Shown here piece by piece: positions 44,639 through 62,749 of a stretch of DNA of 64,000 nt. The position numbers and the translations under genes are program-made. This DNA comes from Candidatus Aegiribacteria sp. MLS_C (lineage in GTDB: Bacteria > Fermentibacterota > Fermentibacteria > Fermentibacterales > JCC-6): the NCBI GenBank assembly GCA_002030045.1, contig LQBI01000004.1, forward strand, positions 23,915 to 87,914, given 5' to 3'. The notes beneath the pieces are model-generated. The model was given only the letters and a program-made list of their open reading frames with translations, did no database searches and was not told where the DNA came from. Numbering within the stretch: position 1 is the first letter of the stretch; every line of letters begins with the position of its first letter.

Positions 44639-44652
44639 AGTCGATTCTCCTC

Positions 44653-44766: not shown

Positions 44767-44794
44767 CCATCAGATTCTCCAAAGCACTCTGCTG

Positions 44795-45085: not shown

Positions 45086-45142
45086 ACTCCTTCCTTATTG
45101 GAAGTTAAGGTCTTGCTAGTCTCTCACTGCCTATGTCTAGTC

Positions 45143-48100
45143 CTAGATAATGTTTGTAATCCCGAATACTGATGGGTATCGCTGTGCTATCCCCATCCAA
45201 CCATCCTTATACGCAAACCTAAGGATGGTGTATCCCATATTCTCAAGACAAGCCTGTTGTTCACCATCACGCTTCTCCCGCTCGGGGTACTCGTGGACAG
45301 GTCCATCAACGTAGATAACTGTGTACTTATCCTCGTACAGGAAATCAGGCCTCGTAGCACACTCTGCGATCAGTTTCTGTGCGTGCGTGGGTAGGCAGAG
45401 TCCATTATCACTGATAAACCTCAACCACTCCCTCTCGAGGTCTGAACCAGCCAGATGGAGCAGGCGGTCCAGATGGTCCTCTCCCCTACCATTTGTCTCA
45501 ATTGGTACGAGACTGGCATCTCTCAGTTTTAGAAGAAGATCACGTACTAGGAACCGATCAAGGTGTTGGTGGTACCTCTGATTACCATAACTGAGAAGGC
45601 AGTCATAGCAGGCCTTACCGCAGTCTTCATCCGCATGAGGGCTGTGCTTTAGGTCCACTCCTGTATCGGGATCGAAGTGACATATCTCAAGAGCCTTCAT
45701 CAATACATCTCTGTACGCAGTTCGATCTTCAAACAACCTGCTGAGTACTCCAGCTCCTCCTTCAGCTGATTCGTAGAAAAGAATCTGGCTGGGGGAGTCA
45801 CCAGTCGGGAGTGTATCCGCAGCTAACTCACTATCCTCAATCTGGAAGGTGAACTGGATGGCATTCTTCAGAGCAGTCTGGAGTGACAACATTGTTTCGA
45901 GTTCAAGTTCTGTAGACGGCTTGAACAAGATGCAGTTCTTGTTGTCTTCAACGTATGGCAAAACTCTCTGTGTGTTGTTACTCAGTGGATCATCCTGATC
46001 ATCCACTATCGCTTCGTTTCTCTGCCATTTACCTTGATCGATATCCAGCACGAAACCTAGTTGCCCTTGATCCCGTCTGCGTTTCCAACCGAGGTTGAGT
46101 CGCCAGATACGGGCTGCCTGTCCGAAGGTGAGGGTGGCAAGGTCATTGCCCTCGTGCTCTATTCGTGCTTGCCTGTATGAGGGTCTGCCGTCTCGTACCT
46201 CAAATCTATACGCAGAGGCCAGATCATACCCGTACCGTACTCTTTCCTCTTCGTCAGCGCTAATACGCTCCCTGCGCCGTGTGGAGACGTTCTGAAGGCG
46301 TAGTAGTCTCTCAAAGGGTCTACCAAGCTCCGCTCCACAGGCTTCACACAGATCGGGCCCTGCTTCGTCGGCGAGTTCGTGGAAGTAGCCGCAGTTGGAA
46401 CAGACCTTGGCGGAGCCTACAGCGATCTTCTCACCCTCCACCATGAAGATGACACGGTCGACTTCGTACTTAGCTCCCTCGTGGTAGAGTATTGCTCTGG
46501 GGCCGAACTCCGAAATCGCGAGGAACCTCGGTCTGGATATGTATTCGTCCTGATCCTTTCTCCTTCGGCGTCCCGGTATGTAGGCGGAGAGAGGGAGTCG
46601 GGGGAAGTTGTAACCCGGCAGGAAACCTTCGCTGGCGAAGTAACGATAGCTGTAGAAGTCGCTCTGACCTCGGGCAGAGTCGTTGAGTAGAAGCTCCAGT
46701 TGCCTGTACGCCTGTCCGTGGAGTCGTTTGGCCCGTTCCTTATCCTTAGTAGAACGTGAAGCGTTCTTCATGATCTTGTTCTGAAGGTCGAGTTGGCTCC
46801 TTGCCGATTTGAAAAGATGCTTCCAGCGGGATGTTGCGGATACGAAAGCATCGAGGGAGTGAAGAAGCTCCTTACGGGTCCAGCCATCCGAATACCAGTA
46901 TGTGTTATGGAGATCGGGCTGTATGTCCGACAGGATGCTTGTTGATCGTTTCATTGCCCGGTCTACTGCTCTTGGGTTCTCCAGTGAGTCACGAACGCTG
47001 CCGAGGAGATCGAGGGATGGATCATCACCTTCGACATCAAGTACTTCTTTCAGGGAGCTTCCAAGCCTCTGCCCTGTCTCCTTGAGCCAGATGGAGTGAA
47101 GGTGGCTTCGAATGAGCTCCTCATTACAGAGATCTACCTGAGGTGGGAATACAGCACCGGAAACCATCAATTCAGGGCGTCTGAAGAAGTATTGATCATG
47201 AGGGCTGCCCTTACCGCAGTAGGCGAAGACGAGTGCAGGCTGGCCGCTCCTGCCGGCTCTACCGCTGCGCTGAGCGTAGTTCGCGGGGCTGGGTGGGACG
47301 TTACGGAGACTGACGACGTTGAGTTCGGCTATATCTACTCCGAGCTCCATCGTTGGGGAGCAGAACATAACGGGGAGGTCTGCTGATCTGAATTCAATCT
47401 CTCGCCGTTCGCGCTCATCACTTGATACCTGCGCGGTGTGTTCCTTGGCGCGGAGGGTGAGGACGCGCTTGGCGATCTCGGAGTAGAAGTATCGGAAGAA
47501 GTCATTCGGGGCAGATTGATCTTCGGATGTCTCGGGGACACGGATGGGGTCCCTGAAACCACTCTTTCCGTCTCCTGCTTTCCAGAGGATTGCGCTGGCC
47601 TTGACTTGGTAGCCGGGTACATCTGAACCGCGTGGGGGTTCGGAGAACCTGCCAACGAGACCACCCCTCCTGAGCACCTTAAGAAGGTCTCGGATGATGA
47701 TGTCCGTGTCGTCGAGTGAGAGCTTGTGGTTGTAGTCCGGGAATGTGCTGTGCAATCTAAGGTGCCTGCCGAAGGCGCTACGAGATGACAGAAATACATT
47801 CGCACTGTAGTCCTCGCGTCTGGATCGCGGACGCGGGAAGAGGATGGCCGCGAAGGTGAGGGTATCTTCATCATCAAGAGCCCAAGGAGGTCGTAGGTGC
47901 TGACCGCTTCTCTGTCGAATCGTGTCCTGCTGTCCTTTATCCAGATATCGGACGTTGATGCAGAGTTCACGACGCATGTAATCCAGAAGGGTCTTCGCAA
48001 CGTACTCGCGTGTATCAGGTTTGGCTTCGGATAGAGTTGTATGGCAGGAATCCCACAGCTCTTGGTCTTCACATACGTCTTTTAGGTAGGCATAGCCGAT

Positions 48101-50317
48101 CTCCAACAGACCGCACTGTTCAAGGTTGGGGACGTTTACCCTCCAGCCACGCTTGAGATCTCGGTAGATGTAGTAACCAAGGACTGCCTTGAAGGCTGAC
48201 TCAACATCCTGTCTGGCTTGATGCCTGACATCTGGATCGAGGGCGTAGGCTTCGAATGGTAAGTCCAGTGCATCGAATACCGACTCCGCCAGATGCTCGT
48301 AGTTCAAGCCTTGCTGTCCAGCTCGTTTGGCAGCCTCGTAGATGCCCGCTCTCAGGATACCCATCTCAACGAAGTCATTGAAATGCCCAGCTTGAAGCGA
48401 AGCGTCCTGCCTGTTATCTGTGAAGCTGAGGAGTTTTTTTGCAGGGTTAGGGAGTTGATCGTCATCCATCAGGGAGAGAACGGTGAAAATACTGAGAAGA
48501 GTTGTGGCGGTGCTGCGCCCCTCAGTACCCAGAGAAGCCAGCTTACTAAAGTCTGAGCGCTGTTGAGGTGCGTAGGCTACCCCGCAGTTCGGGCAGAACC
48601 TGAAGGGTGCGGGGATGAATGCAAACTGAGTTCCGTCATCTGACAAGTATCCCTGTTCATCGATTGTATAGAGCTTCGGCAGCCAGTGCCTTCTACTCCG
48701 TGGAATGCGTGCTACCCCGTCTTTTATCTCAACCCAGTCCTCCGGCAGGCGACTAATGACCTCATCTTCCGCCTCGGGCCAAGGCTTTTCATCACTCTGA
48801 TATAGGTATCCCGCGCTACGGTCCTCTTCACCGGTGATGCGATCGTAGATGTCTCGCTTCTCGAAACTAGCTTCTCCATCCTCGATGTGTCTCTTTGCAA
48901 CGCAGTAGTACTCCTGCCCACACTCCCGGCAAAAGACGAGTGGGAGGAGCACCTGATCAGGATCATCGGGGGCATAGAACTGGCCTGAAAGGGTGATCTT
49001 ACGATGCTGAGGGGGCTGTAGTGTGGCGAAGACCGTCTCGCTGGGACTGATGAACTGATGGACCCTGTAGGCGAATGGAGGATGCCCTGTGGCAGGATTG
49101 GGTGTGCAGTGTGATCCAGTTTCAAGTCCATCGATAATTGCCTCTGCACACACACCCGCATCAAGCCCGGTACAGGCTGATAGTACAGACGCTGCACCTT
49201 TCTCGCCGGTGATGGGTGTGGGTGTTGCACGTATAAGCCTGTTGTCATCTAGGCGGGTTACACCAAACTGTGTTTCAAGCCAGCTGGCTAGAGGATGGTT
49301 TCTGAGCTGCTCGAAGCTGTTTGGTAATCCAGAACCACCTTCGATCGTAGATCGGAGTTTCTGAACCTCATTTTGTGCCTTGAAATCGATCTCTGGGGTA
49401 ATCCTCTGAAGTGTCTCACCGATTACATGCTCTGCATGAACCTCTGAGCCGAAGAGGCGCGAGGCGACAGCAGCGACCTCCTCCTTCTGAGCTTGAAGAG
49501 TACCGGGCCCGGCGAGGGTTGCTGAGGTGCCGATCATCTGGACGTTCGGGGAACTGAAGTACTCCTTGGCTCGCCGTACTAGTAGTGCAACGTCAGCGCC
49601 CTGTCGGCCTCTGTAGGTATGGAGTTCATCCAGTACGAGGAACCTCAGATCGGATGCTGCACGTACGAGAGGTTCTTCTGCTGGTCTCGTGAGAATCAGT
49701 TCGAGCATGACATAGTTGGTGAGGAGTATGTCGGGGGGATCGGCGCAGATGGCTGCCTTCTCCTCCTCGGACTCCTGCCCCGTGTATCTGGCGAAGGTCA
49801 CAGGACCTCTGTCGTCCGGGTAACCTTCGTTGATGAACTTCTGCAGTTCCTTCTCTTGGCTGTTTGCGAGAGCGTTGAGGGGATATACGATTACGGCGCT
49901 GATTGATCGTTTACGGCTCTCTGAGCGGAGGACGTGATCTACGATGGGGATGATGTAGGCGAGGCTCTTTCCCGATCCTGTTCCAGTGGTCAGGACATAG
50001 TTAGCACTTTCACGAGCTGCTCTAATGGCGTCGACTTGGTGCTGATACAGCCTTAGCGGCGTTGGCATCGTGTCCTTGTCGAAGGCAAAGATGTTCTGAC
50101 ACTCAGGATGAAGTAAGTCCTCCTTAACCAGCTCCTCAATGCTGCCACCACTCTCGAACATCGGGTTGATTTGCACCAACGGATCGGGCCAGAGGAGACC
50201 CTCTGAGATGGTCTGTTCGACCTTATCTGATATTCGTTGATCTCGGATGCGGATAAAGCTTCTGATGTATCGTGCGTATTCACTGACTAGTCTCTCTCGA
50301 AGCCCAAACGCATCCAT
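45143..50317 (-). CDS. DEAD-box helicase-DUF1998 protein with C-terminal nuclease-like domain (DrmAB/DruE-like)
   Basis: I start at the ATG at 50317, which follows AGGAGG by 5 nt (1,724 aa); an in-frame TTG at 50338 is unlikely. Helicase motifs are VLTTGTGSGKSLAYIIP (~110), FLVLDELHTYRGRQGADVA (~230), GTSATLAG, VMFCSPTMELGVDI and YAQRSGRAGRSGQP (~1,080). Zinc motifs include FCRECGQEY, FCPNCGVAY and CSNCGYF...CEACG. The DUF1998 end is CGKACYDCLLSYGNQRYHQH (~1,565). The last ~100 residues (RPDFLYEDKYTVIYVDGPVH; GYTILRF) look like a Vsr/DUF559-type nuclease fold. It could be a fused DrmA-DrmB or a Druantia DruE relative. Confidence 0.8.
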   Translation of the reverse strand: MDAFGLRERLVSEYARYIRSFIRIRDQRISDKVEQTISEGLLWPDPLVQINPMFESGGSIEELVKEDLLHPECQNIFAFDKDTMPTPLRLYQHQVDAIRAARESANYVLTTGTGSGKSLAYIIPIVDHVLRSESRKRSISAVIVYPLNALANSQEKELQKFINEGYPDDRGPVTFARYTGQESEEEKAAICADPPDILLTNYVMLELILTRPAEEPLVRAASDLRFLVLDELHTYRGRQGADVALLVRRAKEYFSSPNVQMIGTSATLAGPGTLQAQKEEVAAVASRLFGSEVHAEHVIGETLQRITPEIDFKAQNEVQKLRSTIEGGSGLPNSFEQLRNHPLASWLETQFGVTRLDDNRLIRATPTPITGEKGAASVLSACTGLDAGVCAEAIIDGLETGSHCTPNPATGHPPFAYRVHQFISPSETVFATLQPPQHRKITLSGQFYAPDDPDQVLLPLVFCRECGQEYYCVAKRHIEDGEASFEKRDIYDRITGEEDRSAGYLYQSDEKPWPEAEDEVISRLPEDWVEIKDGVARIPRSRRHWLPKLYTIDEQGYLSDDGTQFAFIPAPFRFCPNCGVAYAPQQRSDFSKLASLGTEGRSTATTLLSIFTVLSLMDDDQLPNPAKKLLSFTDNRQDASLQAGHFNDFVEMGILRAGIYEAAKRAGQQGLNYEHLAESVFDALDLPFEAYALDPDVRHQARQDVESAFKAVLGYYIYRDLKRGWRVNVPNLEQCGLLEIGYAYLKDVCEDQELWDSCHTTLSEAKPDTREYVAKTLLDYMRRELCINVRYLDKGQQDTIRQRSGQHLRPPWALDDEDTLTFAAILFPRPRSRREDYSANVFLSSRSAFGRHLRLHSTFPDYNHKLSLDDTDIIIRDLLKVLRRGGLVGRFSEPPRGSDVPGYQVKASAILWKAGDGKSGFRDPIRVPETSEDQSAPNDFFRYFYSEIAKRVLTLRAKEHTAQVSSDERERREIEFRSADLPVMFCSPTMELGVDIAELNVVSLRNVPPSPANYAQRSGRAGRSGQPALVFAYCGKGSPHDQYFFRRPELMVSGAVFPPQVDLCNEELIRSHLHSIWLKETGQRLGSSLKEVLDVEGDDPSLDLLGSVRDSLENPRAVDRAMKRSTSILSDIQPDLHNTYWYSDGWTRKELLHSLDAFVSATSRWKHLFKSARSQLDLQNKIMKNASRSTKDKERAKRLHGQAYRQLELLLNDSARGQSDFYSYRYFASEGFLPGYNFPRLPLSAYIPGRRRRKDQDEYISRPRFLAISEFGPRAILYHEGAKYEVDRVIFMVEGEKIAVGSAKVCSNCGYFHELADEAGPDLCEACGAELGRPFERLLRLQNVSTRRRERISADEEERVRYGYDLASAYRFEVRDGRPSYRQARIEHEGNDLATLTFGQAARIWRLNLGWKRRRDQGQLGFVLDIDQGKWQRNEAIVDDQDDPLSNNTQRVLPYVEDNKNCILFKPSTELELETMLSLQTALKNAIQFTFQIEDSELAADTLPTGDSPSQILFYESAEGGAGVLSRLFEDRTAYRDVLMKALEICHFDPDTGVDLKHSPHADEDCGKACYDCLLSYGNQRYHQHLDRFLVRDLLLKLRDASLVPIETNGRGEDHLDRLLHLAGSDLEREWLRFISDNGLCLPTHAQKLIAECATRPDFLYEDKYTVIYVDGPVHEYPEREKRDGEQQACLENMGYTILRFAYKDGWMGIAQRYPSVFGITNII

Positions 50318-50935
50318 CCCTACCTCCTGCACAAGCAATAGAAATCGAATTTAAAATATAGCCATGCAATGCAGTTGAGGATAGGGTGCATGGTTAGAAA
50401 CAGATCGAATCTAGCAGAGTCTTAACTGAAGGTTATCTCGTAAACATTTATGCTGGGAAGTTAGGCTACTTATCGAAGATGGTAGTTAAGCGCGAATGCT
50501 CTTCAATGTATTCAGTAGAAGTAGCATGCATTGTCGTATATATATAACAATGAACGGCATAGCCTAACTTAGTTGTTGCAGCTTAGGAGGTTAACTGAAC
50601 TTTCAGAGCTAAAAACAGGGTTTTCTGATTATAGGATATATCGTTACTAGTGAAAGAGCGAGAGAATCGTTCATCAGTATAGGAACACTGCATTGGTTCG
50701 TGCAAGTGAAGTGCCAAGATACTCGCATTTGATGAAGCTGGAGAGGAAGAGAAAAGGTTGGATTCTTATTCTTGTATATTGAAGTGGTCAGGTATTCGTC
50801 TGTTTTGTACTTCTGATGAAGTGTTATGTAATGGCACTGATCTCGAGCAAGACGTATATTTAATAATTGACTTATTGAAGTCTTCACAGATTCCTTTTTA
50901 GTTAATACAGTAACCTGAAAGGAAGCCTGGGTTTT
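50318..50935. other. AT-rich divergent intergenic region
   Basis: This 618-nt gap separates the defence locus from the UvrA-like gene. No convincing ORF is seen; one minus-strand frame overlapping the UvrA start (50609-50965) lacks a start signal and protein-like composition. It must hold promoters for both sides. Confidence 0.5.
50883..50911 (+). promoter_or_regulatory. Putative promoter of the UvrA-like operon
   Basis: TTCACA (50883-50888) and TACAGT (50906-50911) are spaced by 17 nt and lie 25 nt before the ATG at 50936. The match is 5/6 and 4/6 to the sigma70 consensus. GAAAGGAA just downstream would be the ribosome-binding site. Confidence 0.35.
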
Positions 50936-53900
50936 ATGGAATTCAGTTCTTGCTTCGATATCCACAACGCTAATGCAAACAACCTATGTGGTTTCAATGT
51001 TTCTATTCCAAAGGGACAGTGGATAGCAGTTACTGGACCATCTGGTTCAGGAAAGTCAAGTCTTGTCTTTGACATCATTTATAGAAGTGGAAGTAGAAAT
51101 GCTTTAGATAGACTTACCGCAAGCCGTAAAAGATACCTTGTAGAACCTACTCCACCTGGAGCCGATTCTGTTGACAACCTCGGTGTTGCTTTTGCTATGC
51201 GTCAAAGTTTATCTCGCCCCAATATTAGATCCACACTCGCCACAATGACACGTATTCAGTCAGAACTACGATCAGCTTATCTACTCAGCAGTCAGCCGAC
51301 ATGTCCTGAGACAGGAAAGAAGCTTGTACGTTTTTCAGATAATCCCAGAGTTGAGGCATTCACACTTCTAGGCTCGAGATGGCCAAGGAGCGAAATCCTT
51401 GTCATTGGAATGATGAATAGAGATGATGAACAGCTGAAAAGGCTTGTTCGGCTTGGTTTTTCGTCATTAGATGATCTTGAAAGAAACATGCAAAAAACTC
51501 TTGCTAGGGCTAGCATAGATAATAGCAAATACACGTGCTTAAGAATAGCTTCAAGTGACATCACATTATCAAAGAAGTTGGTATCCTATTTTGATGTAAT
51601 TGGTGAATGGCCCCTTCTTATTGCTAGCCATCAAGATGATATTCAATCCATCCAAGAGGTCTTGGATTTATCTTCTTGTCTTATTTCACCCTCGTCATTG
51701 GTTTTATATCCGTCTCCCTCCATGAGTCTATTCAGCTACAATGTTCCACCCGAGAGAGGGGGTGGAATGTGCCCAGAATGCCGTGGAACTGGACTAGACG
51801 CTACTTATAGATCAGGCGGCAGTAATGAGTTATCCAATAAACACAGCAAGAAACTATCAATAGCAGATGAGGACGTAAACGAGTTAGAAGATATAGGGGA
51901 AGATAACCAAAGTAGTATTTCTAGTTCTGAGGATGATTTAGTCTGTAATAAATGTATGGGGAAACGTTATTCCATGAATCTTGCTGCTTATCAAATTGAG
52001 GGACTTAGCATTACCGAATTACTTTCACTATCTCCTGTTGAACTACTTCGTCAAAGCTGGCTTGAAGGGGATGACAAGGAGGATGTGTATCAATTCGAGT
52101 ATGTATTCAATTTAGTGAGTGCATTAGTACAATTGGGGCTTGGCCATATACCACTTGGTAGATCATTTGCTTCCCTAAGCTTAGGTGAGAGACAGCGTGC
52201 ACGGTTAGCAGTACAGGTAGCTTCCGGACTACATGGAGCAACTTATGTGCTTGATGAGCCTTCCCAAGGACTTCATAAAGCTGATCTTAATTACATCACA
52301 AGTGCAATTGAAAGTCTTGTCAGCCGTGACAGTACCGTAATAACAGTGGATCATAATGCTGAACTACAAGAAAAGGCACAGTACACAATCAGTCTTGGGC
52401 CAGGCTCCGGTCCTGAGGGGGGACAGCTACTTTCTCAAGGGGTCGATAATACTTCTAAGACTTGGCCTTCAATCCAACGGTCAGTTAGAATCAAACAACC
52501 TTCGTGGTGGATACATATTAATGGTCTTTCCAGAAATAATATCGAGTCACTAAATCTTGATATTCCTTGCTCTCAACTTGTTGGTGTTTGTGGTGTTTCA
52601 GGAAGTGGTAAAACTTCTCTGATTGAAGGTTTAGATATATTACTCCAAGATTCGCATACATCTATTACCAACGAGATTCATGGTAGCGTTGTTACTGATC
52701 GTCAAATTGACCGAGCAGTTCTTCTTGGTCAGATGCCCCCACCCGCAAACCCATTGTCAATCCCTGCAACTGTCTTGGGAATACACGACTTCTTTCGAAA
52801 GGAATTTGCCAGAACAGATGTAAGTCGTTCTATTGGATTACGTCCCATTGATTTTTCACTTACTAGCAAGAGCAGACTTGCTTGTGGCAATTGCTCAGGT
52901 ATTGGTTATATCACTGAAAAATCTAAGACTTACGGTATGTGTCGAAGAATCTGCGAAGTCTGTGGTGGAAAAAGGTTTCTTCCAATGGCAAGCCTTTCAC
53001 AACTACAAGGAAGAAGCATTATTGAAATTCTAGAATTAAGTCTCAAAGATATACATGCTATATACTTGCATATACTACCGAAAAAATATCTTCAAGCACT
53101 TCAGTGGTGTGAGGATTTACTGCTTGGCCATCTGCTATATGGTCAACCCTTTTCAACACTCTCTGGTGGAGAGGTCCAAAGGCTCCGTTTCGCTCAGACT
53201 CTATCTAAGTCACCCACGAAAAAGGACATTTTCCTTCTTGATGAGCCAAGCAGAGGATTACACTCACGTGAGTTAAATCAACTTGGTAAAGTCTTACGTG
53301 GACTTGCTGATGGCGGAACTTCGGTAATCGACGTTGAACATGATATCGAAACACTGAGGATATGTGATCAACTAATTGAACTTGGTCCCGGTGCTGGTGT
53401 GGATGGTGGTCATGTTATTGCTTCAGGACCTCCAGCAGCAATCGCATCACTTAATACTCCGACGGGTAAGGCTCTTCGTGGAGAAATTGCCCTAAACAAT
53501 ATTCCACCAGCTATGCAAACAAAGAATGATCTCACGATAGCCGCGCCTTCCGGAGATAAAATACCACTTTCTCACGGACAAACGTTAGTATTAACTGGGC
53601 CATCGGGTTCAGGCAAAACACAAATCGCCGTCGGTGGAATATATTCACTCTGCGAGAGTGCACTGTATGCAGGCCTTGGAGGTAGAGATAAAAGCAAGAA
53701 CGAAGATGAAGAAACTAACATCCATTCGGCAGTATTGAATCCAAGACCTGCTTTCTTACTTTCCATCGACAGATCAACTTTCATGAATCTAGAAACTGTT
53801 GGCTCTGTTCTAGAGGCTACACAACTACTAGCTAGAGTATTCATTTCCTCCGATCAAAGATACTGTCCTCGTTGTGGCTGCAGATTGAACTATCACAGTT

Positions 53901-55765
53901 CATCATCAATAAATACAAATGAGTTACCTGCTTGGTATCAAGATGATGAATGTGCTTTCAAACCAAAGAGTAAAAAAGGTACCACTCAATTGACTTCTGT
54001 TTTTGCAGATGCTCTGGGTGTAGGTACTATTGCGTATAATAACAAATCACTTCCTATTAAGGCTTTGAACGATTGCCACTCTGCAAGTGTAACCAAAGGT
54101 CCATTTATCATTGCATCGACTCTTGAGATAGCGCAAGCGATAGGTGGAGGAACAGCTGTTATCTTAGATAAAGATACACTTTCTCCTTTACGCTGGATTG
54201 GATCACTTGTTTGTCTTGAATGTGGATGGAAAGGAAAGAATCTCCTTACAGAAGCATTCTTTGACAGACAACACCCTTTGGGCGGTTGCCATGGATGTAA
54301 TGGTACGGGACATCTTTCTGTCTTTGACCGTGCGCTGCTGTTTGAAGGGAATGGTCTAGTTAGACCCTTGAAAAGAATCCTTTATGGTAAGAGAGTGAAA
54401 CAACTTGCAGATGCGTTTGCTTCACAGTATGAATTACCATTCCCTCAGGATGAGTTATCCAAGCAAAGCGATGAAGTCCTATTTCCTCTACTTTATGGAT
54501 ATCCTTACCATCCAATAAGGATACGTGGAAAGGACTTCCAGTGGAATGGAATATATCAGTATGCGTTAGCTTACTTGAAGTATGGAAGAGACGATAACTT
54601 TGCCAAGTCTGTTCTTGAGACAAAGAGAGAAATCCCTTGCGTACATTGTTTGGGCACAGGCTACTCTGATCAGGCAAGAACATCGAGATTAGCAGGTATG
54701 TCGATTAATGAGGCAATGGAAATACCTCTTGCAGTACTTGATAATAAGTTAATTGATAGTGATGTGAATACCAAAGCATATGGTAAACTGATACATATTG
54801 TTCATCATGCAGCTAGTCTTGGACTAGGTGATATTTCACTAGGTCAACACATCTCCGATCTAAATCCAACAAAACAAAGACTTCTTGCTTTATTAGTCGC
54901 TGATAGGACTATTGCTTCTGGTGATTTACTGATTTGGGAGCAACCCGGATGGGAATTTTCGGCAAAAGAGTGGCTGCCTATTCATAACTTATTAAGCTCT
55001 ATGAAATCTCGGGACATCTCAACAATCATAACTGACAGTAGATCCCGAGTGAAACCACAGGACTCAAAGATACTAGAGTGTTCTACTGGTAAACACTTTC
55101 ATGAGTTTGTACCAGATCATCAGGTACCTAGGGATTGTTATAATAATAGTCCATTAAATAGCGATTATAACAAAACGAATGAAGACTATGAAACGACACA
55201 TAGTGAATGTGAATCCGTCTTGTGGATAGAGCGCGATGAGTCTTCCTTCAGTTATGTTGATGATTTTTTGAATATAATCCAAAATGATGGTACTCAGACC
55301 ATAACAATAGGTATAGAGTCACCTTCATGGTCATCTAGAACAACATTACAAAGCTTGCTCAGTATTCTACCCAGAAGTTCAAAGTATCGCTCACTTCAAA
55401 GTACAAAACTACATGAAATACTGGGTATTAAGGGTCTCTCAAAGCAAGTGGTTTCAAAGACTGCATTCCTAGTGGAGTGCGGACTAGGGTATCTAAGACT
55501 CTCCGATACGGTATATAGTTTGCCATTAGGACAACGAATCATACTGAATTGCTTGAAACAAACTGGACTACTCGAGCAAACTCATCCTCGGCTGTTAGTC
55601 CACTTGGTAGAACCTTCGCCTTCTGGTCATAAGGCAGACTTAGAAATATGGGCGAAAATTGTAGAACGAGTTATAGCAGTTGGTTCTTCTGTATTATTGT
55701 CTTGTGATGAAAACTCTCGTCGGGTTATAGCTCCGAATGCAAAACTACTCAGGCAAGAGGTCTAA
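50936..55765 (+). CDS. Giant UvrA-like ABC ATPase, two UvrA units fused in one chain
   Basis: UvrA is normally ~940 aa with two ATPase halves; this protein is 1,609 aa with four. Half 1: Walker A GPSGSGKSS (~34), zinc module CPECRGTG...CNKCMGKRY (279 on), signature SLGERQRARL (~415), Walker B YVLDEPSQGLH (~437). Half 2: GVSGSGKTSL (~553), CGNCSGIGY...CEVCGGKRF (~649), LSGGEVQRLRF (~740), FLLDEPSRGLH (~764). Half 3: GPSGSGKTQI (~886), CPRCGC and CHGCNGTG zinc pairs, but the signature is only LNPTKQRLLA and Walker B is LLIWEQPGWEF. Half 4 has lost Walker A and keeps only LPLGQRIILN and HLVEPSPSGH. So one protomer looks active and the other decayed. UvrA-like proteins bind damaged or drug-bound DNA. 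It leads the plus-strand part of the RiPP-like cluster. Confidence 0.85.
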   Translation: MEFSSCFDIHNANANNLCGFNVSIPKGQWIAVTGPSGSGKSSLVFDIIYRSGSRNALDRLTASRKRYLVEPTPPGADSVDNLGVAFAMRQSLSRPNIRSTLATMTRIQSELRSAYLLSSQPTCPETGKKLVRFSDNPRVEAFTLLGSRWPRSEILVIGMMNRDDEQLKRLVRLGFSSLDDLERNMQKTLARASIDNSKYTCLRIASSDITLSKKLVSYFDVIGEWPLLIASHQDDIQSIQEVLDLSSCLISPSSLVLYPSPSMSLFSYNVPPERGGGMCPECRGTGLDATYRSGGSNELSNKHSKKLSIADEDVNELEDIGEDNQSSISSSEDDLVCNKCMGKRYSMNLAAYQIEGLSITELLSLSPVELLRQSWLEGDDKEDVYQFEYVFNLVSALVQLGLGHIPLGRSFASLSLGERQRARLAVQVASGLHGATYVLDEPSQGLHKADLNYITSAIESLVSRDSTVITVDHNAELQEKAQYTISLGPGSGPEGGQLLSQGVDNTSKTWPSIQRSVRIKQPSWWIHINGLSRNNIESLNLDIPCSQLVGVCGVSGSGKTSLIEGLDILLQDSHTSITNEIHGSVVTDRQIDRAVLLGQMPPPANPLSIPATVLGIHDFFRKEFARTDVSRSIGLRPIDFSLTSKSRLACGNCSGIGYITEKSKTYGMCRRICEVCGGKRFLPMASLSQLQGRSIIEILELSLKDIHAIYLHILPKKYLQALQWCEDLLLGHLLYGQPFSTLSGGEVQRLRFAQTLSKSPTKKDIFLLDEPSRGLHSRELNQLGKVLRGLADGGTSVIDVEHDIETLRICDQLIELGPGAGVDGGHVIASGPPAAIASLNTPTGKALRGEIALNNIPPAMQTKNDLTIAAPSGDKIPLSHGQTLVLTGPSGSGKTQIAVGGIYSLCESALYAGLGGRDKSKNEDEETNIHSAVLNPRPAFLLSIDRSTFMNLETVGSVLEATQLLARVFISSDQRYCPRCGCRLNYHSSSSINTNELPAWYQDDECAFKPKSKKGTTQLTSVFADALGVGTIAYNNKSLPIKALNDCHSASVTKGPFIIASTLEIAQAIGGGTAVILDKDTLSPLRWIGSLVCLECGWKGKNLLTEAFFDRQHPLGGCHGCNGTGHLSVFDRALLFEGNGLVRPLKRILYGKRVKQLADAFASQYELPFPQDELSKQSDEVLFPLLYGYPYHPIRIRGKDFQWNGIYQYALAYLKYGRDDNFAKSVLETKREIPCVHCLGTGYSDQARTSRLAGMSINEAMEIPLAVLDNKLIDSDVNTKAYGKLIHIVHHAASLGLGDISLGQHISDLNPTKQRLLALLVADRTIASGDLLIWEQPGWEFSAKEWLPIHNLLSSMKSRDISTIITDSRSRVKPQDSKILECSTGKHFHEFVPDHQVPRDCYNNSPLNSDYNKTNEDYETTHSECESVLWIERDESSFSYVDDFLNIIQNDGTQTITIGIESPSWSSRTTLQSLLSILPRSSKYRSLQSTKLHEILGIKGLSKQVVSKTAFLVECGLGYLRLSDTVYSLPLGQRIILNCLKQTGLLEQTHPRLLVHLVEPSPSGHKADLEIWAKIVERVIAVGSSVLLSCDENSRRVIAPNAKLLRQEV

Positions 55766-55827
55766 GTTGATCTATTGACTTCAGTACAGACAGAAGGAAC
55801 GCGAACATTCGTAATAGGATTGGATAA

Positions 55828-56298
55828 TTGGCTGATAAGTGTAGATATCAATGGGACTTGTGCGAAGTTGACTCAGCAGGACACAGACACACTCGTACAA
55901 TAAATGGCATTCCATATGATGTGATTAAACTTCAACGAATTACGAGAGATCTTCCTATCGTTTTACTAGAGCAGTCATGTTTCCAGTCATTACTTAATAG
56001 AAAAGTCTGGGGCTCACCTCATTCGAATTCGGATAGGTTCAGTCCACTTGAAGTTGTTTCTTATCTTAGAACAGGAGTAGTGTCGAAAAGATACGTAGCT
56101 GAAGTGCAAAATGAAATACTTCCAATACTAAAAGCGGATATGCAATATCCTATTCTCCTTACAACTATTGATGGTGTAGACATGGTACTTGATGGAATGC
56201 ATAGGTTGGCAAAGGCATACCTATTTTGCTTGGAAATATATTCAATCGAAGTACCGTTAATTATCCTTGAGAGGTGTCGGATTCCTGTTTGTAGATGA
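55828..56298 (+). CDS. ParB/Srx-fold-like protein
   Basis: A TTG start gives 156 aa; the start is uncertain because no good ribosome-binding site is present. The C-terminal half reads ILPILKADMQYPILLTTIDG and VLDGMHRLAKAYLF, the DG-x-HRL-x-A-x pattern of ParB-N/sulfiredoxin-fold proteins. Relatives bind CTP or act as small nucleases or kinases. The N-terminal half has WDLCEVDSAGHRHTRTING and IVLLEQSCFQSLL. It follows the UvrA-like gene by 62 nt and precedes the kinase-like gene, so all three are probably one transcript. Its role is not known. Confidence 0.6.
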   Translation: MADKCRYQWDLCEVDSAGHRHTRTINGIPYDVIKLQRITRDLPIVLLEQSCFQSLLNRKVWGSPHSNSDRFSPLEVVSYLRTGVVSKRYVAEVQNEILPILKADMQYPILLTTIDGVDMVLDGMHRLAKAYLFCLEIYSIEVPLIILERCRIPVCR

Positions 56299-56344
56299 AG
56301 TATACTACACGAAGAGGATTCATTTCTTTGTACAGTAAAGGTTC

Positions 56345-56836
56345 ATGATGAAGAGCTTAACTAGTTCTAAGACAATAGTAATAACTGGAGCGTGCTGTTC
56401 TGGTAAGACTACGCTTAGTCGTATGATTTCAACGATGCTTTCTTTGCCAGTAATACACTTGGATGAAGTACTACCCCGACGAGGAGGGAATCATTGGACC
56501 TCAGAAATAGACTTACGCACATTACTCCTTCATTTACGAGGTCGTCATCTTATCGAGGGAGCACAGGTACTTGGTCTTAACAGCGCAGACCTTAATGATT
56601 TTCTAGTTTTCTTAATCGATGCAGAGCGTGATGAAGTTATTAGAAGACTAGTCAGACGTGGATTTCATGATAACCAAGGTCGATTAGTGAAAGGTCATAG
56701 TCAGCTTTCGCGTATTAATACTGAGATTGATTGGCAGATGAAGAAAATCGATGAATTTTCACGCCGCATTCCTAATTTGATCCATGTTCAAATGCCTTGG
56801 GAAAGAGCTGTAATGCAGATTTTAGATTGTATCTAA
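56345..56836 (+). CDS. P-loop nucleotide kinase-like protein
   Basis: The 163-aa protein starts with Walker A GACCSGKTT (15-23), followed by LPVIHLDEVLPRRGGNHW (substrate/metal Asp) and an arginine-rich lid (DEVIRRLVRRGFHDNQGR). This is the plan of adenylate/shikimate-kinase-like proteins such as AAA_17/AAA_18 families. Two adjacent ATGs follow AAAGG. It is the last gene of the plus-strand operon; its stop lies 9 nt from the end of the convergent radical SAM gene. A substrate cannot be named; it might phosphorylate the RiPP, a precursor or a nucleotide. Confidence 0.7.
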   Translation: MMKSLTSSKTIVITGACCSGKTTLSRMISTMLSLPVIHLDEVLPRRGGNHWTSEIDLRTLLLHLRGRHLIEGAQVLGLNSADLNDFLVFLIDAERDEVIRRLVRRGFHDNQGRLVKGHSQLSRINTEIDWQMKKIDEFSRRIPNLIHVQMPWERAVMQILDCI

Positions 56837-56844
56837 TCAGCGTA

Positions 56845-57738
56845 TCATTTAGTTCTAATCACTTCGAATTCGTTTGAGTACTCTCTCCACACTCCTGGAC
56901 ATACTCGAGATATACCACAAGAGCTACATGAGTCAGGCCAAAACCTCTGACGTCCAAACTCAGTTTGATAATAGTCAATCGTGTTTCCTGATGATACCTT
57001 AAAGGTCTTAATCAAACCTGGCCAATAGAGTTCTGAACAAGAGTACTCCATGTCTCGCAATAGGCAAACGGGAAAGCCTTCTACCTGAACAAATCTCTGT
57101 TCGAATTTGGATACTGTTGTTCTTGCTTCTTTAAGAGCCTCTGTTAGTCTTGGTTTCAAATTAGATGTAGACAGATCTGAAATATGCATAAGCGATAATT
57201 GGACATGATGGCAATTATGACTCTTTGATAACTCCGCTATTTCAAAAAGGTTACTTGTATTTCTAGCTGTTATTACAGCATTTGTAGCAACGTGAATTCC
57301 AGCTTGAGAACAGGTATCGATAGCAGAAATAGCTCTACTCCAAGACCCTTTTCTATTGACTAATTCATCGTGAGTATTGGCAAAGCTAGAATGCAATGAA
57401 ACTGTTACTTCTACTCTACAGATAGATGTCATCTCGGATAGAACTCTGATAACATCCTGATAGTCAGCTATAGCCCCATTTGTTTGAACTTGAATTCTAG
57501 AAAATCCCAACTCAGCCGAATAATTTAGTAAATCAACAAGATCAGTTCTAGAACTAGGTTCACCCCCTGTTAGTACAAGATACTCAACTCCATCTTTACG
57601 TAACGTGAGTAGCATTCTACGTATAGCATCTAATGTGTAATCCTGTACATCCTCATCACGCACACAAAAACAACATTTCTGATCACAATTGGAGGTTAGA
57701 ACAACTGAGCCTGCACAGATATTATTCAGTGGTCTCAC
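56845..57738 (-). CDS. Radical SAM protein (second enzyme of the peptide cluster)
   Basis: A GTG start overlapping the upstream SPASM gene by 17 nt gives 297 aa. The core has SNCDQKCCFCV (Cys 18, 22, 25), LVLTGGEPSSR (~57), VQTNGAI, VTVSLHSSF and NAVITARN. The C-terminus carries CSSCGISRVCPGVWREY, a short C-x2-C-x5-C auxiliary-cluster-like motif. It differs from the SPASM enzyme and may install a second modification or act on another substrate. No ribosome-binding site is visible, so translation should depend on the upstream gene. Confidence 0.85.
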   Translation of the reverse strand: MRPLNNICAGSVVLTSNCDQKCCFCVRDEDVQDYTLDAIRRMLLTLRKDGVEYLVLTGGEPSSRTDLVDLLNYSAELGFSRIQVQTNGAIADYQDVIRVLSEMTSICRVEVTVSLHSSFANTHDELVNRKGSWSRAISAIDTCSQAGIHVATNAVITARNTSNLFEIAELSKSHNCHHVQLSLMHISDLSTSNLKPRLTEALKEARTTVSKFEQRFVQVEGFPVCLLRDMEYSCSELYWPGLIKTFKVSSGNTIDYYQTEFGRQRFWPDSCSSCGISRVCPGVWREYSNEFEVIRTK

Positions 57739-58891
57739 TAATAGCCCTACGTAATTCTGTTATTAAGGTTATTTTAGCTTTGCAATACTCCTCCAGCCAC
57801 TTTGGAAAGCGTTTACCAATTATGGCTCTATGCATCATGCATGCACCTGTACAGACGTCGAAGACAGGACACTCACGACAATCTTCAAGCAACCGCTTCT
57901 TCTCTTCAGCGAATGTTTGATATCTACCCTTTCCCAGTATGAGACCACGTAACTGCTTTTCCTCGAGGTTAAAGACATTCCCTACTCTTGCATAGTTATC
58001 ACGGATATAGGCATCACAGAGGAATGACTCTCCATCTGGATATACCATTAAAAAGCCTTCACACTTATCCTTGCTGTATTCACACCATGGTGTAGGCAAT
58101 CCTTGCATCTTTGATATAATGCTTGTTAGTGGATCGATAAACATCCCTGTTTGCTTATCTTTCGCAGTTCCCGCACATCGTGCCCAGTATTTGAATGCTT
58201 TAAGCATGAACGAAGTGAACTCAGAAGGGCTTATTGCAAACTCCTCCAATTGGCCTGATTCATCAAGGTCGTAACATGGAAGAAACCTTACGAATTTGCA
58301 ATTTAGATTGTTCAGAGTGTCAATGATCTTCTCGGGAATATTAACATTATGTCTAGCAATGACAGTAAGAAGACCATAATTAATCTGTCTTTCATGCAGA
58401 AGCTTGATTCCATTCTTAACTAACTCAAAGCTCCCTGATCCATCTGCATGCCTTCTATACATGTCATGGATGTTCTTAGGTCCATCGATACTAATGCTTA
58501 TTGGATGATATGATGTAAGATTACTAGCAGATTGCCATATATCGAGCCAGCTATTTGTTAGCAGGGTTCCATTAGTCTGTACTGAGAGTCCAACGCGATT
58601 TCCAAATTCAACGCTGGATTTATTACAGGCTTCAATTATTAGCATTAACGATTCATCACTAATTAGAAGAGGCTCGCCACCGTGCAGAAGAAAAAGAAGT
58701 CTTGATTCCTGAACACACGACCCAATTCTCTCGATTAGTTTCCACGGTTCGGGCATCATTGATGGAGATGAAGAACTCACCCGTTCGTAGCAATAAGAAC
58801 AAGATAAATTACATGACGTTGTGACCTTTAAGACGATAGTTCGTCTTACTGTATTGGTCAGCTTGTAATCATCTTGAGAGCTAATCACCAA
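57722..58891 (-). CDS. SPASM-domain radical SAM peptide maturase
   Basis: The 389-aa protein has the radical SAM cluster motif SCNLSCSYCYE (Cys 27, 31, 34), LLFLLHGGEPLL (~72), VGLSVQTNGTLLT and SISIDGP. A complete C-terminal SPASM domain follows: CEYSKDKCEGF, YPDGESFLCDAY, VGNVF and DCRECPVFDVCTGACMMHRA (~345), enough for two auxiliary [4Fe-4S] clusters. Enzymes of this build crosslink ribosomal peptides (sactipeptides, streptide, three-residue cyclophanes). The start is TTG 58891 or GTG 58888, inside the final codons of the 64-aa peptide gene, so the two are translationally coupled. I infer that this peptide is the substrate. Confidence 0.9.
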   Translation of the reverse strand: MVISSQDDYKLTNTVRRTIVLKVTTSCNLSCSYCYERVSSSSPSMMPEPWKLIERIGSCVQESRLLFLLHGGEPLLISDESLMLIIEACNKSSVEFGNRVGLSVQTNGTLLTNSWLDIWQSASNLTSYHPISISIDGPKNIHDMYRRHADGSGSFELVKNGIKLLHERQINYGLLTVIARHNVNIPEKIIDTLNNLNCKFVRFLPCYDLDESGQLEEFAISPSEFTSFMLKAFKYWARCAGTAKDKQTGMFIDPLTSIISKMQGLPTPWCEYSKDKCEGFLMVYPDGESFLCDAYIRDNYARVGNVFNLEEKQLRGLILGKGRYQTFAEEKKRLLEDCRECPVFDVCTGACMMHRAIIGKRFPKWLEEYCKAKITLITELRRAISETTE

Positions 58892-59079
58892 CCTCTTGTA
58901 TAATCGCTATGATTAGTCCAATGTGTCATCTGAGTATCTTGCCCAGATGCCTTGATCTGTTCTACGATAAGTGCAATCCCTCGTGCTTCAGTATCGCTAT
59001 ATGCTTGACCAATTGCATGAGAGTCTTCTGTTTGATGTGTATTATTCTTAACCTCTTCTTCGGTCCTCACATAATCCAT
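58885..59079 (-). CDS. Putative RiPP precursor peptide
   Basis: The ATG at 59079 has a very good ribosome-binding site (AAAGGAGTG, spacing 4-6). The 64-aa product has a polar, acidic leader-like part (MDYVRTEEEVKNNTHQTEDS, then SDTEARGIALIVEQIKASGQ) and a short aromatic end, HWTNHSDYTRGW. That end contains W54-T-N56 and Y60-T-R62, two aromatic-x-x tripeptides of the kind crosslinked by cyclophane-forming SPASM enzymes, plus a C-terminal Trp. Its last codons overlap the maturase start. There is no double-glycine cleavage motif, and no protease or transporter gene is nearby. The call rests on size, position and the core pattern. Confidence 0.75.
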   Translation of the reverse strand: MDYVRTEEEVKNNTHQTEDSHAIGQAYSDTEARGIALIVEQIKASGQDTQMTHWTNHSDYTRGW

Positions 59080-59136: not shown

Positions 59137-59165
59137 ATTCTTCTTTCCACTCTCATCAATGTCAA
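59137..59165 (-). promoter_or_regulatory. Putative promoter of the peptide/radical SAM operon
   Basis: On the minus strand a perfect TTGACA (59160-59165) is followed after 17 nt by AAGAAT (59137-59142). This lies 58 nt before the peptide start codon, in the 153-nt gap after the second recombinase. The ribosome-binding site lies in a small palindrome (ACTCC-AAA-GGAGT, 59088-59100) that could mask it. Confidence 0.45.
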
Positions 59166-59232: not shown

Positions 59233-61197
59233 CTACCTATTGAAATATAGGCGGAGCTGCCGTTCTGTTATCAACTGCTTTTCCCAGTTGTCACCCATTC
59301 TGCTGATCTCCTGCTGCAGTTCCGGTGGCAAATTCAGCAAGTTGAGGAGCTGTGTGATCCTTGCTCTAGAGTAGCCCAGCCTGCGTGCCAGCTCCGCCCT
59401 TGTCAGGTCCTCCAGTTCCATGGTCGTGTAGAGTTCTTCAGCCAGTATGAGTGGGTTCCTGAAGCGCTTCTTGGGCTTCTTCTCAGGGAGTGCCTGTATG
59501 CCGGCATTTAGCCACAGAACAGTACGTTGGGAGACTCGCTTGGCGCGCCATTTCCCGATCTGCTCGAACCCACCCTTTTTGGTTGACATTCTGTAGATGT
59601 ATCTGAGTGCATTGACGTGGAGATTGAACACCATCTTGTCTTCACTGACCACAATATCCCTGAACAAGTACTTCACTAAGTCTTCACGTTGCTTTCTTGG
59701 ACCAAACTCAGCCAATCTACGCATATTACTCAGCAGTGATACGATCTCATCTTTGGATACCTTCTGAGATTGCTTATCATCAAGGATAGCCTTAATCTTT
59801 CTCATACTATCCTGAATATTGGCAAGTACTTCTGTTTGATCCTTAACTTGTTGCATGTTAAGCTTATACTCATTGCTTTCTTTTTCGAATGAAGGTAAAG
59901 CTCTGGATAACTCATGCACTTCATTCTTTATCTCTCGTGACCTATTGGTAAGAGCAATGAGCTTCCCTTTAAGTTTCGGAATCTCATCGTGAATGGACTT
60001 GTTGACCAGATTCTCAAGCTCTGCAATATAGGCCTCAGATGCTATTATCTTCTCTATGACTTCATATGTAGCCCTATCAGCCTCTTCAGCATCAATATGA
60101 AATCTACTCCTCCTCCCCGAACTAAGCTCTTCCGACACTGGACAGGCATCATTAAAGCATGAGTAGTAATAGTACATCTTCCCGTGCCGCTTACCGCTTC
60201 TGCTCTTAAGCAGAGTATCACATGCAGCGCATTTCGCTCTCTTCTGTATTAAATAGAAATGCCCCTTATCAGGTTTCTTCTTCGCAATATTACCTTTCTT
60301 TTTCTTTGCCATCGCTCGTGCAGATTGAACCTCGTAGAAAAGGTCTTCTGATATAATGGGTTGCCATGCTGCATTACTGATTCTCTCAACAACTTCACCA
60401 GTACTCTCATCTATTTCAGAGTATTTCCTAAGTGCAATGTACTTCACATTAGTAAGTATGGTCCTTACAACGTTTTCTGTAATGGGGCCCCCTCCCTTTC
60501 TTTTCCCTGTTTTCCTGTTCATCCAACTCTTATTCTTATAACCTTTCCCGGTTAGATAATCGGATACTGCTTTATCGGATCCTAATTCCATGTACTTCTT
60601 GAAAGCCTCTTCTACTATGAGGGCCTCCTTCTCGTTCACAATGAGTGTTCCTGCTTCAAGAGGGTTTGGATTAAGGTTATACCCTAAGATCGGTCTACCG
60701 CCGTTATATAGGCCTTCCTGGGCACGATACAGTGTATTACGCCTGTTCCTTTCACTCTTGATATCGAGTTCAAGTTTGGCCAGAGTCATGAGTATTACAA
60801 CCATGGCTTCACCTGTTGGTGTGCTCGTATCCAAGCTCATTCTGGTACAGATTAGCTCGACATCGTTATCATCCAGAAACTTATAGAACTCAATGAAACC
60901 AGCAACATCACGACCAAGGCGGTCTAGTGCAGTGCACATAACAACATTGACTTTATCAAACTCAATATCAATTCTCAGCCTGTCGAATTCATCACTTTCA
61001 AATGATTCACTTCCTGAGATACCCCTTAGGTTGTATGTGTCGAATTCAATGTATTGTGGTCCATCTTTGTTACTGTTCTTTGCCTCTATATGCTTTCGAA
61101 GTTCCTGGAGCTGGATATCGAATGAATTCTTGTAAGTCTCGGCTTGTCTAGGATCACTGACACGGATCACCAGACCGCAGTGTTTGACCTCAGCCAT
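59233..61197 (-). CDS. Large serine recombinase with extra C-terminal HTH domain
   Basis: The 654-aa protein has the catalytic domain (CGLVIRVSDPRQ, Ser14; GISGSESFESDEFDRL; CTALDRLGRDVAGFIEFY), the recombinase domain (GGRPILGYNLNPNP, VRTILTNVKYIALR), a zinc ribbon (CAACDTLLK...CFNDAC) and a long coiled coil (~400-480). It is clearly related to the recombinase at 30262-31941. Beyond the usual end it carries ~90 residues with EDLTRAELARRLGYSRARIT, a ParB/KorB-like helix-turn-helix (~598-622), then a short tail. GGGGAGA precedes the ATG. It could integrate this or a nested element; the HTH may give site choice or self-regulation. Confidence 0.9.
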   Translation of the reverse strand: MAEVKHCGLVIRVSDPRQAETYKNSFDIQLQELRKHIEAKNSNKDGPQYIEFDTYNLRGISGSESFESDEFDRLRIDIEFDKVNVVMCTALDRLGRDVAGFIEFYKFLDDNDVELICTRMSLDTSTPTGEAMVVILMTLAKLELDIKSERNRRNTLYRAQEGLYNGGRPILGYNLNPNPLEAGTLIVNEKEALIVEEAFKKYMELGSDKAVSDYLTGKGYKNKSWMNRKTGKRKGGGPITENVVRTILTNVKYIALRKYSEIDESTGEVVERISNAAWQPIISEDLFYEVQSARAMAKKKKGNIAKKKPDKGHFYLIQKRAKCAACDTLLKSRSGKRHGKMYYYYSCFNDACPVSEELSSGRRSRFHIDAEEADRATYEVIEKIIASEAYIAELENLVNKSIHDEIPKLKGKLIALTNRSREIKNEVHELSRALPSFEKESNEYKLNMQQVKDQTEVLANIQDSMRKIKAILDDKQSQKVSKDEIVSLLSNMRRLAEFGPRKQREDLVKYLFRDIVVSEDKMVFNLHVNALRYIYRMSTKKGGFEQIGKWRAKRVSQRTVLWLNAGIQALPEKKPKKRFRNPLILAEELYTTMELEDLTRAELARRLGYSRARITQLLNLLNLPPELQQEISRMGDNWEKQLITERQLRLYFNR

Positions 61198-61786: not shown

Positions 61787-62749
61787 CTAGTCGGAGTCAG
61801 GGTTTTCTTCTTGGTTATCCTCTGGTTTCTGGAATTCCTCAGCTAGTTCAAGTAATAAGTCGAAAGAATCCATTTTTGGGATACAAGCTGCACTCCATTT
61901 ATCTGCAATTCCATAAACTATTCGCCCACCATTGCATTGTTCAAAGAAGTCTATGATAGCTTCTTTATGCTTATATTCTGTACTGTATTTATCTGGCCTT
62001 ATTAGAAAGATTTCAGATTCCAAGTGATACCCGTAATGAAAAACCATGGCATCTTCACCTTCTCCATTGAGAATCTTCAATACTGAGCCATTATCTTTGT
62101 AAGGTATCCCTTTAGCATCCAATAGAGCAGAAAGTTCTTCAGCATCCTTCTTCCAGAACTTCCACATGTTAAATTCTTCCCACTCTTTGCCAGTGCTGTT
62201 AGTGATGTAGTCCTTCTCTTCCAATGCAAAGTACTTCACACCTGGTAGATAAAATCTTTCGGGTTCCTTGTAATAGCAAGGAGAGGATTGCTTTATCTGC
62301 TCGTAGTGTTCCCTGGAATAAGGTAGTGCTGGATTAGGATAGAAAGGATCATCAGGATCAAAGAATGATGGCATCTCTATATTTTTGAATATCAATTCTA
62401 TAGACTTCAATCTGATATACTCATCATCGCTATCTAGAAGGATATTGAGATCTTCTAGTCCTTTCATATGTAAAGCTAATATCTTTCTCTTTGATGCCTT
62501 CCATAGATCATGTTGACGCCTCAGTAGCACTTCTTTGAATACAGAACCAGGTTGCATCCATCTTGAAATTGTTCTCTGTGTTACGCCAATCTCTGCTGCT
62601 ACTTCTGACTGTGTCTTTCCTTGCAAAAGTAGTGAAATAGCATGCATATGCCTTGGTTTCAATTCAACAACTTCTCGGCCATAGCCTTCGTCCGCACCTT
62701 TGTAACCGGAAATCTTCTCCCAGTCAGGTTCATTGGTGTTTTCACACAT
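61787..62749 (-). CDS. HTH-domain protein
   Basis: The 320-aa product begins with a helix-turn-helix of the terminase-small-subunit/transposase type (ELKPRHMHAISLLLQGKTQS, EVAAEIGVTQRTISRWMQPG, ~30-72). A ~75-residue helical part follows and then a C-terminal region of unknown type with many aromatic and acidic residues (WEEFNMWKFWKKDAEELSAL; GGRIVYGIADKWSA). It may regulate the element or be a phage-derived DNA-binding protein. It is divergent from the DUF932 gene across a 279-nt gap. Confidence 0.6.
   Translation of the reverse strand: MCENTNEPDWEKISGYKGADEGYGREVVELKPRHMHAISLLLQGKTQSEVAAEIGVTQRTISRWMQPGSVFKEVLLRRQHDLWKASKRKILALHMKGLEDLNILLDSDDEYIRLKSIELIFKNIEMPSFFDPDDPFYPNPALPYSREHYEQIKQSSPCYYKEPERFYLPGVKYFALEEKDYITNSTGKEWEEFNMWKFWKKDAEELSALLDAKGIPYKDNGSVLKILNGEGEDAMVFHYGYHLESEIFLIRPDKYSTEYKHKEAIIDFFEQCNGGRIVYGIADKWSAACIPKMDSFDLLLELAEEFQKPEDNQEENPDSD

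What the first reader, a model, noticed from the sequence alone, without database searches (positions are those of the whole stretch)
50936..59079. Candidate undescribed system: fused-UvrA ATPase facing a radical-SAM-modified peptide operon
Two convergent operons of the same AT-rich composition meet with 9 nt between stops. One encodes a giant UvrA-like ATPase, a ParB-like protein and a P-loop kinase-like protein. The other encodes a 64-aa peptide, a SPASM radical SAM enzyme and a second radical SAM enzyme. Seen directly: gene order, overlaps, motifs. Known: SPASM enzymes mature RiPPs, and UvrA-like ABC proteins such as DrrC give self-resistance to DNA-binding antibiotics. Inference: the cluster makes a modified peptide whose target or toxicity involves DNA or a DNA-bound enzyme, and the UvrA-like protein is either immunity or effector. 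It lies beside an anti-phage locus, so a defence role is also open.
Basis: partly seen in the sequence, partly recalled or inferred. Interest (0 to 1): 0.92.

Follow-up and report, generated by a model that had tools for sequence, protein, structure and literature searches.

The report
Orphan fused UvrA facing peptide-modification operon
On a mobile island of an uncultured bacterium, an operon that probably makes a small ring-cross-linked peptide lies end to end with an operon for a strange two-in-one DNA-repair-like ATPase; both are real and without close relatives in what I searched, but nothing yet shows that they work together.

Summary
In detail: two convergent operons, 8 nt between stop codons, six intact ORFs. 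The 1,609-aa protein is a tandem UvrA that has become asymmetric. Copy A keeps both ATPase sites and zinc modules 2 and 3 but has lost module 1 and shrunk its insertion domain. Copy B keeps modules 1 and 2 and a full-length insertion domain but has lost module 3 and nearly all ATPase motifs. It fails the UvrA family cut-off, and the genome has a separate normal uvrA. The facing operon is a credible RiPP operon. Its 64-aa peptide is coding by codon statistics and ends in WTN-HSD-YTR-GW, three back-to-back aromatic-x-polar triplets of the kind three-residue-cyclophane enzymes cross-link. Its SPASM enzyme scores best with sulfatase/cyclophane maturases; its second radical SAM enzyme is HxsC-like. 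Searches of about 1,000 distinct genomes, plus plasmid, phage and viral collections, found no orthologue of either half. Other tandem UvrAs (1,844 and 1,996 aa) stand without radical SAM relatives in the flanks read. The two operons share a codon signature different from the neighbouring anti-phage locus, but a third gene shares it too. UvrA as immunity to the peptide is the best guess, unproven. A defence role has no positive support.

The parts
50936..55765 (+). Tandem UvrA-like ATPase, 1,609 aa: copy A (aa 1 to about 860), two intact ABC ATPase sites, zinc modules 2 and 3, truncated insertion domain; copy B (aa about 870-1609), zinc modules 1 and 2 and full-length insertion domain, ATPase motifs mostly lost, zinc module 3 deleted
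   Evidence: below the TIGR00630 cut-off (466 vs 729.8 bits)
55828..56298 (+). 156-aa protein with a GxHR-type motif (DGMHR); 'ParB-like' only tentatively
   Evidence: PHROG 17560, E 9e-7 over 40 aa; AlphaFold model uninformative
56345..56836 (+). 163-aa P-loop nucleotide-kinase-like protein
   Evidence: AAA_18 1e-5; PRK08118 1.4e-6, all below cut-offs
56845..57738 (-). Second radical SAM enzyme, 297 aa, HxsC-like, with a C-terminal CxxCx5CxG motif
   Evidence: (TIGR03977 79.5 bits, below cut-off)
57722..58891 (-). Radical SAM/SPASM peptide-maturase-like enzyme, 389 aa (probable start GTG at 58888)
   Evidence: (anaerobic sulfatase maturase 199 bits, YhhB 143 bits, both below cut-offs)
58885..59079 (-). 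64-aa putative RiPP precursor; C-terminal core WTN-HSD-YTR-GW
59137..59165 (-). Promoter-like site TTGACA-17-AAGAAT upstream of the peptide (10 of 12; total count of such sites is at chance level)
59233..61197 (-). Large serine recombinase with a C-terminal ParB-type HTH, directly upstream of the peptide operon; marks the mobile element
61787..62749 (-). 320-aa HTH protein (terminase-small-subunit-like N-terminus) with the same codon usage as the two operons

Best explanation
A block of AT-rich cargo on a recombinase-carried island. The minus operon makes a ribosomal peptide whose C-terminal triplets W-T-N, (H-S-D) and Y-T-R are cross-linked by the SPASM enzyme into three-residue cyclophanes, with a further or alternative modification by the HxsC-like enzyme. 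The plus operon encodes an asymmetric fused UvrA dimer. Copy A supplies the ATPase and zinc module 3. Copy B is a pseudo-ATPase that supplies the single full insertion domain and the zinc-1/UvrB-binding-type module. Together they would form a one-chain clamp that recognises a DNA-bound ligand or lesion and uses ATP to displace it or hand it to repair. The likeliest reason for the two operons sitting together, if they do act together, is that the UvrA protects the cell from the peptide or from damage it causes. Shown: ORFs, domain losses, codon-usage match, motif pattern. Inferred from family knowledge: cross-linking and DNA binding. Guess: immunity.
For: Peptide coding and overlapping with the SPASM gene. 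Three back-to-back aromatic-x-polar triplets at the C-terminus, 0.2-0.3% in shuffles, post hoc motif. YhhB cross-links Tyr-x-Arg and XncB/OscB cross-link Trp-x-Asn (PMC11002830), and YhhB is the second-best NCBIfam match of the SPASM protein. rSAM2 is HxsC-like, and a relative lies beside a His-x-Ser-rich peptide ORF in another genome. UvrA map: three intact Walker A motifs, two intact signature/Walker B/H-loop sets all in copy A, and complementary loss of zinc modules and insertion domain. Separate canonical uvrA of 954 aa in the genome. Codon-usage correlation uvrA-SPASM 0.92, uvrA-rSAM2 0.84, against 0.33-0.41 with the helicase and methylase of the neighbouring defence locus. Stand-alone UvrA-like proteins give self-resistance in DNA-binding antibiotic clusters (PMC10192343, PMC10413001).
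Against: The operons are convergent, so not co-transcribed. No orthologous locus was found to show co-inheritance. A third gene (61787-62749) has the same codon signature (r 0.84 with uvrA), so composition marks the whole block, not a two-operon system. Known UvrA resistance proteins lack zinc module 1 but need an insertion domain; here copy A has lost it and only copy B could supply it. There is no exporter or peptidase in the operon, and I know of no cyclophane RiPP that acts on DNA. Both structure predictions failed (pLDDT 31 and 38), so copy B's fold beyond aa ~1290 is not established.
Confidence: 0.35

Rival explanations
1. Two independent cargo operons of one mobile block: a RiPP operon and an accessory UvrA-like operon (for example for DNA damage or foreign-DNA handling) that came from the same AT-rich donor but do not act together.
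For: Convergent arrangement; a third unrelated gene has the same codon signature; none of 42 viral-contig UvrA loci has SPASM or rSAM2 relatives; nearest SPASM loci lack a fused UvrA.
Against: Only 8 nt separate the stop codons, and uvrA and SPASM share the closest codon usage in the block; no third cargo gene lies between them.
Confidence: 0.45
2. An anti-phage or abortive module associated with the neighbouring Dpd/Druantia-like locus, with the UvrA as sensor and the peptide as effector.
For: Adjacent to a defence-like locus at 37283-50338; UvrA binds DNA.
Against: Codon usage and GC of the defence genes differ sharply (GC3 0.56-0.58 against 0.28-0.37); PADLOC matches are generic ABC-type or viperin-like cross-hits.
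Confidence: 0.08
3. The SPASM enzyme is an anaerobic sulfatase maturase (or similar) with a protein substrate elsewhere, and the 64-aa ORF is not its substrate.
For: Best NCBIfam match is anaerobic sulfatase maturase, 199 bits, below its 349-bit cut-off; nearest genome hits are about 29% identical maturase-like enzymes.
Against: No C/S-x-P-x-R motif in any protein of the two operons; the peptide gene is coding and overlaps the enzyme gene; cyclophane enzymes are related to sulfatase maturases and also score.
Confidence: 0.12

Closest known systems
Triceptides (three-residue cyclophane RiPPs; XncB, OscB, YhhB)
   Same: Short precursor beside a radical SAM/SPASM enzyme; W-x-N and Y-x-R triplets match reported cross-link sites
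   Different: SPASM protein is below the YhhB cut-off (143 vs 445 bits); extra HxsC-like enzyme; chemistry untested
His-Xaa-Ser (Hxs) system: paired radical SAM enzymes HxsB/HxsC
   Same: A SPASM enzyme paired with a short HxsC-like radical SAM enzyme
   Different: No HxsA-type repeat peptide and no recognised HxsD; both enzymes below family cut-offs
UvrA-like self-resistance proteins (DrrC, Ecm16, MtrX)
   Same: UvrA-like ABC ATPase lacking zinc module 1 in its catalytic half; stands beside a candidate biosynthetic operon
   Different: Fused pseudo-dimer; catalytic half has lost the insertion domain; a second half keeps zinc module 1; the cases named in the papers read protect against DNA intercalators and other DNA-binding antibiotics
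Tandem UvrA proteins (NCBIfam NF001885, and the 1,844- and 1,996-aa proteins in L195/L199)
   Same: Two UvrA units in one chain
   Different: L195 and L199 have four Walker A motifs and pass the UvrA family cut-off; here one unit is degenerate and the protein falls below it

Membership tests
UvrA (TIGR00630, excinuclease subunit A) | Curated score cut-off 729.8 bits | tested here: not met
   466 bits; two other tandem UvrAs score 1,877 and 2,389
UvrA (TIGR00630, excinuclease subunit A) | Two complete ABC ATPase units per UvrA copy | tested here: not met
   Complete in copy A, degenerate in copy B
UvrA-like self-resistance proteins (DrrC/Ecm16) | No zinc module 1 / UvrB-binding domain | tested here: inconclusive
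   Module 1 cysteines lost in copy A but retained in copy B (C977/C980, C1093/C1096)
UvrA-like self-resistance proteins (DrrC/Ecm16) | Insertion domain of about 100 residues | tested here: inconclusive
   About 54 aa and acidic in copy A, about 113 aa in copy B
UvrA-like self-resistance proteins (DrrC/Ecm16) | Confers resistance to the product of the linked cluster | not testable with these tools
   Needs an experiment
Triceptide / 3-CyFE system | Radical SAM enzyme with SPASM domain | tested here: met
   PF04055 and PF13186 above cut-off; CxxCx5CxxxC...C present
Triceptide / 3-CyFE system | Precursor with aromatic-x-X3 triplets near the C-terminus | tested here: met
   WTN, HSD, YTR consecutive; shuffles 0.2-0.3%, motif set chosen after seeing the sequence
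Triceptide / 3-CyFE system | Score above a named cyclophane-maturase family cut-off | tested here: not met
   YhhB 143 of 445 bits; FxsB 108 of 370; XyeB 72 of 450
Triceptide / 3-CyFE system | Cbeta-aryl cross-link formed | not testable with these tools
   Needs mass spectrometry or NMR
His-Xaa-Ser system | HxsC above cut-off and an HxsA-type repeat peptide | tested here: not met
   79.5 of 267.9 bits; the peptide has no H-x-S repeats

The most novel reading that the evidence does not exclude
A new producer-immunity pair: a cyclophane-type RiPP that acts at DNA or at a DNA-bound enzyme, protected against by a one-chain, asymmetric UvrA pseudo-dimer in which ATPase and lesion recognition have been split between two fused copies.
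Probability: 0.2. Interest if true: 0.85.

Novelty: new variant of a known kind. Interest (0 to 1): 0.5.

Why it matters
The fused protein looks like a natural separation-of-function UvrA: one half with ATPase sites and zinc module 3, the other with the insertion domain and zinc module 1. That would let one ask directly what each UvrA protomer does in damage recognition, which is hard in the symmetric homodimer. If tied to the peptide, it would extend UvrA-type self-resistance from DNA intercalators to radical-SAM RiPPs and point to a RiPP with a DNA-associated target.

Tried and rejected
Single-sequence scans for the fused UvrA and the SPASM enzyme found nothing in viral contigs, nor copy B in genome contigs. 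Copy B or the full protein was not found in the phylum (42 genomes), 385 relatives, 294 Planctomycetota-centred, 296 Bacteroidota-centred and 299 Bacillota-centred genomes; the last three searches carried no positive control. Plasmid and phage tblastn: only ordinary UvrA matches, none covering 80% of the query. The 156-aa protein has no plasmid match. A weak peptide match in a same-genus genome (G015) was rejected as antisense to a longer ORF and with an internal stop. AlphaFold of the 156-aa protein and of copy B gave pLDDT 38 and 31, unusable, so no fold search was run. The UvrA tree puts both copies on very long branches, so their placement is unresolved. No att-type repeat of the tRNA-Asn end was found in the window, and the contig ends at the window end. 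No C/S-x-P-x-R sulfatase-type substrate motif in either operon. No Rfam element other than the tRNA.

Full report
What is there. The window is the end of contig 4 of a 2.98-Mb genome. From about 30.2 kb, at a tRNA-Asn gene whose end overlaps the frame of a large serine recombinase, GC falls from about 60% to 40-55%: an integrated island that runs off the contig. A second large serine recombinase (59233-61197) stands directly upstream of the peptide operon on the same strand.

The peptide operon. The 64-aa ORF has a good ribosome site, overlaps the SPASM gene (GTGA) and scores as coding: 0.246 bits per codon, above every wrong-frame control window and at the 89th percentile of true windows. Its end reads ...THWTNHSDYTRGW: three consecutive triplets WTN, HSD, YTR. 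Reported three-residue cyclophane enzymes join Trp to Asn or Arg two residues on (XncB; OscB: Asn or Asp) and Tyr or His to Arg (YhhB) (PMC11002830). Shuffling gives such a run in 0.2-0.3% of cases, but I chose the motif set after seeing the sequence. The 389-aa enzyme carries radical SAM and SPASM domains above Pfam cut-offs. Its best NCBIfam matches are anaerobic sulfatase maturase (199 bits) and then YhhB (143), both below cut-off. The 297-aa enzyme is HxsC-like and keeps a C-terminal CxxCx5CxG motif shared with relatives in another genome (G160), one of which lies beside a peptide ORF rich in His-x-Ser triplets. So: RiPP operon, probably; triceptide-like chemistry, plausible; neither enzyme passes the cut-off of a named family.

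The fused UvrA. Aligned with ordinary UvrAs, copy A (aa 1-860) has Walker A at 34 and 553, signatures at 414 and 742, Walker B at 440 and 769 and H-loops at 471 and 800. It has zinc module 2 (C279/C282, C337/C340) and module 3 (C650/C653, C673/C676). Module 1 is gone, and the insertion domain is cut to about 54 acidic residues. Copy B has one Walker A (888) and degenerate remainders (LNPTK at 1309, LIWEQP around 1335). It has module 1 (C977/C980, C1093/C1096), module 2 (C1118/C1121, C1235/C1238) and an insertion domain of about 113 residues, and lacks module 3. Zinc-module numbering follows the Ecm16 paper (PMC10192343). The best UvrA HMM alignment of copy B ends near residue 1270 of the protein, and the last 369 residues match nothing on their own. 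The losses are complementary, as expected of a one-chain dimer whose halves have specialised. This division of labour is my inference from anatomy. The protein scores 466 bits against the UvrA cut-off of 729.8, and the genome has a separate intact uvrA, so this is an accessory protein.

Relatives. No orthologue of the fused UvrA or of the SPASM enzyme was found in the searches listed under 'tried'; several negative searches had no positive control. An alignment-guided scan of viral contigs returned 42 UvrA loci. Two are tandem UvrAs of 1,844 and 1,996 aa with four Walker A motifs and scores of 1,877 and 2,389 bits. None of the 42 has a SPASM or rSAM2 relative in the flanks held. Fused UvrAs therefore occur apart from radical SAM operons, but these are not orthologues: in trees both copies of the present protein sit on very long branches away from them.

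Are the two operons one system? Codon usage: uvrA correlates 0.92 with SPASM, 0.84 with rSAM2, 0.84 and 0.80 with its own operon mates, but 0.33-0.41 with the helicase and methylase of the defence locus and about 0 with a core gene. The same holds for the neighbouring 320-aa HTH gene (0.84 with uvrA). So the block probably has one origin, and the defence genes another. This is consistent with one system and equally with shared cargo. The immunity idea has a precedent in Ecm16, DrrC and similar proteins (PMC10192343, PMC10413001). Against a simple transfer of that precedent: Ecm16 without its insertion domain does not bind DNA, and copy A here has lost that domain; it can be supplied only by copy B. 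I hold cyclophane-type RiPP at about 0.6, asymmetric UvrA pseudo-dimer at about 0.8, and a functional link between the operons at about 0.4.

Verdict. A correct and careful observation, two orphan modules of real interest, a link that is open, and no support for a defence role.

Noticed in passing
window 37283-50338 (-): Defence-like locus of mixed kinship: a DrmMI/type IIG-like methylase, a DpdE-like SNF2 helicase (792 bits), a pPIWI_RE-type REase-like protein and a 1,731-aa DruE-like helicase with an MrfA zinc-binding domain; not a standard Dpd, DISARM or Druantia set.
   Followed up: partly
L195 (same as L196) 9965-15496: A 1,844-aa tandem UvrA on a viral contig about 5 kb from a tail gene and a terminase-like gene; its first copy lacks zinc module 1 while its second has a truncated insertion domain (46 aa), another asymmetric split.
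   Followed up: partly
L199 9875-15862: A 1,996-aa tandem UvrA with both copies complete; the two copies are sisters in the tree, suggesting an independent duplication.
   Followed up: partly
L186 1-2397: Peptide ORF rich in His-x-Ser/Ala triplets followed by two HxsC-like radical SAM genes without an HxsB-like gene in the stretch held.
   Followed up: no
window 30228-31941: tRNA-Asn overlapped by the 3' end of a large serine recombinase frame, the likely left end of the island; no matching repeat elsewhere in the window.
   Followed up: partly
window 50339-50935: About 600 bp upstream of the fused uvrA with no convincing gene and no Rfam match.
   Followed up: no
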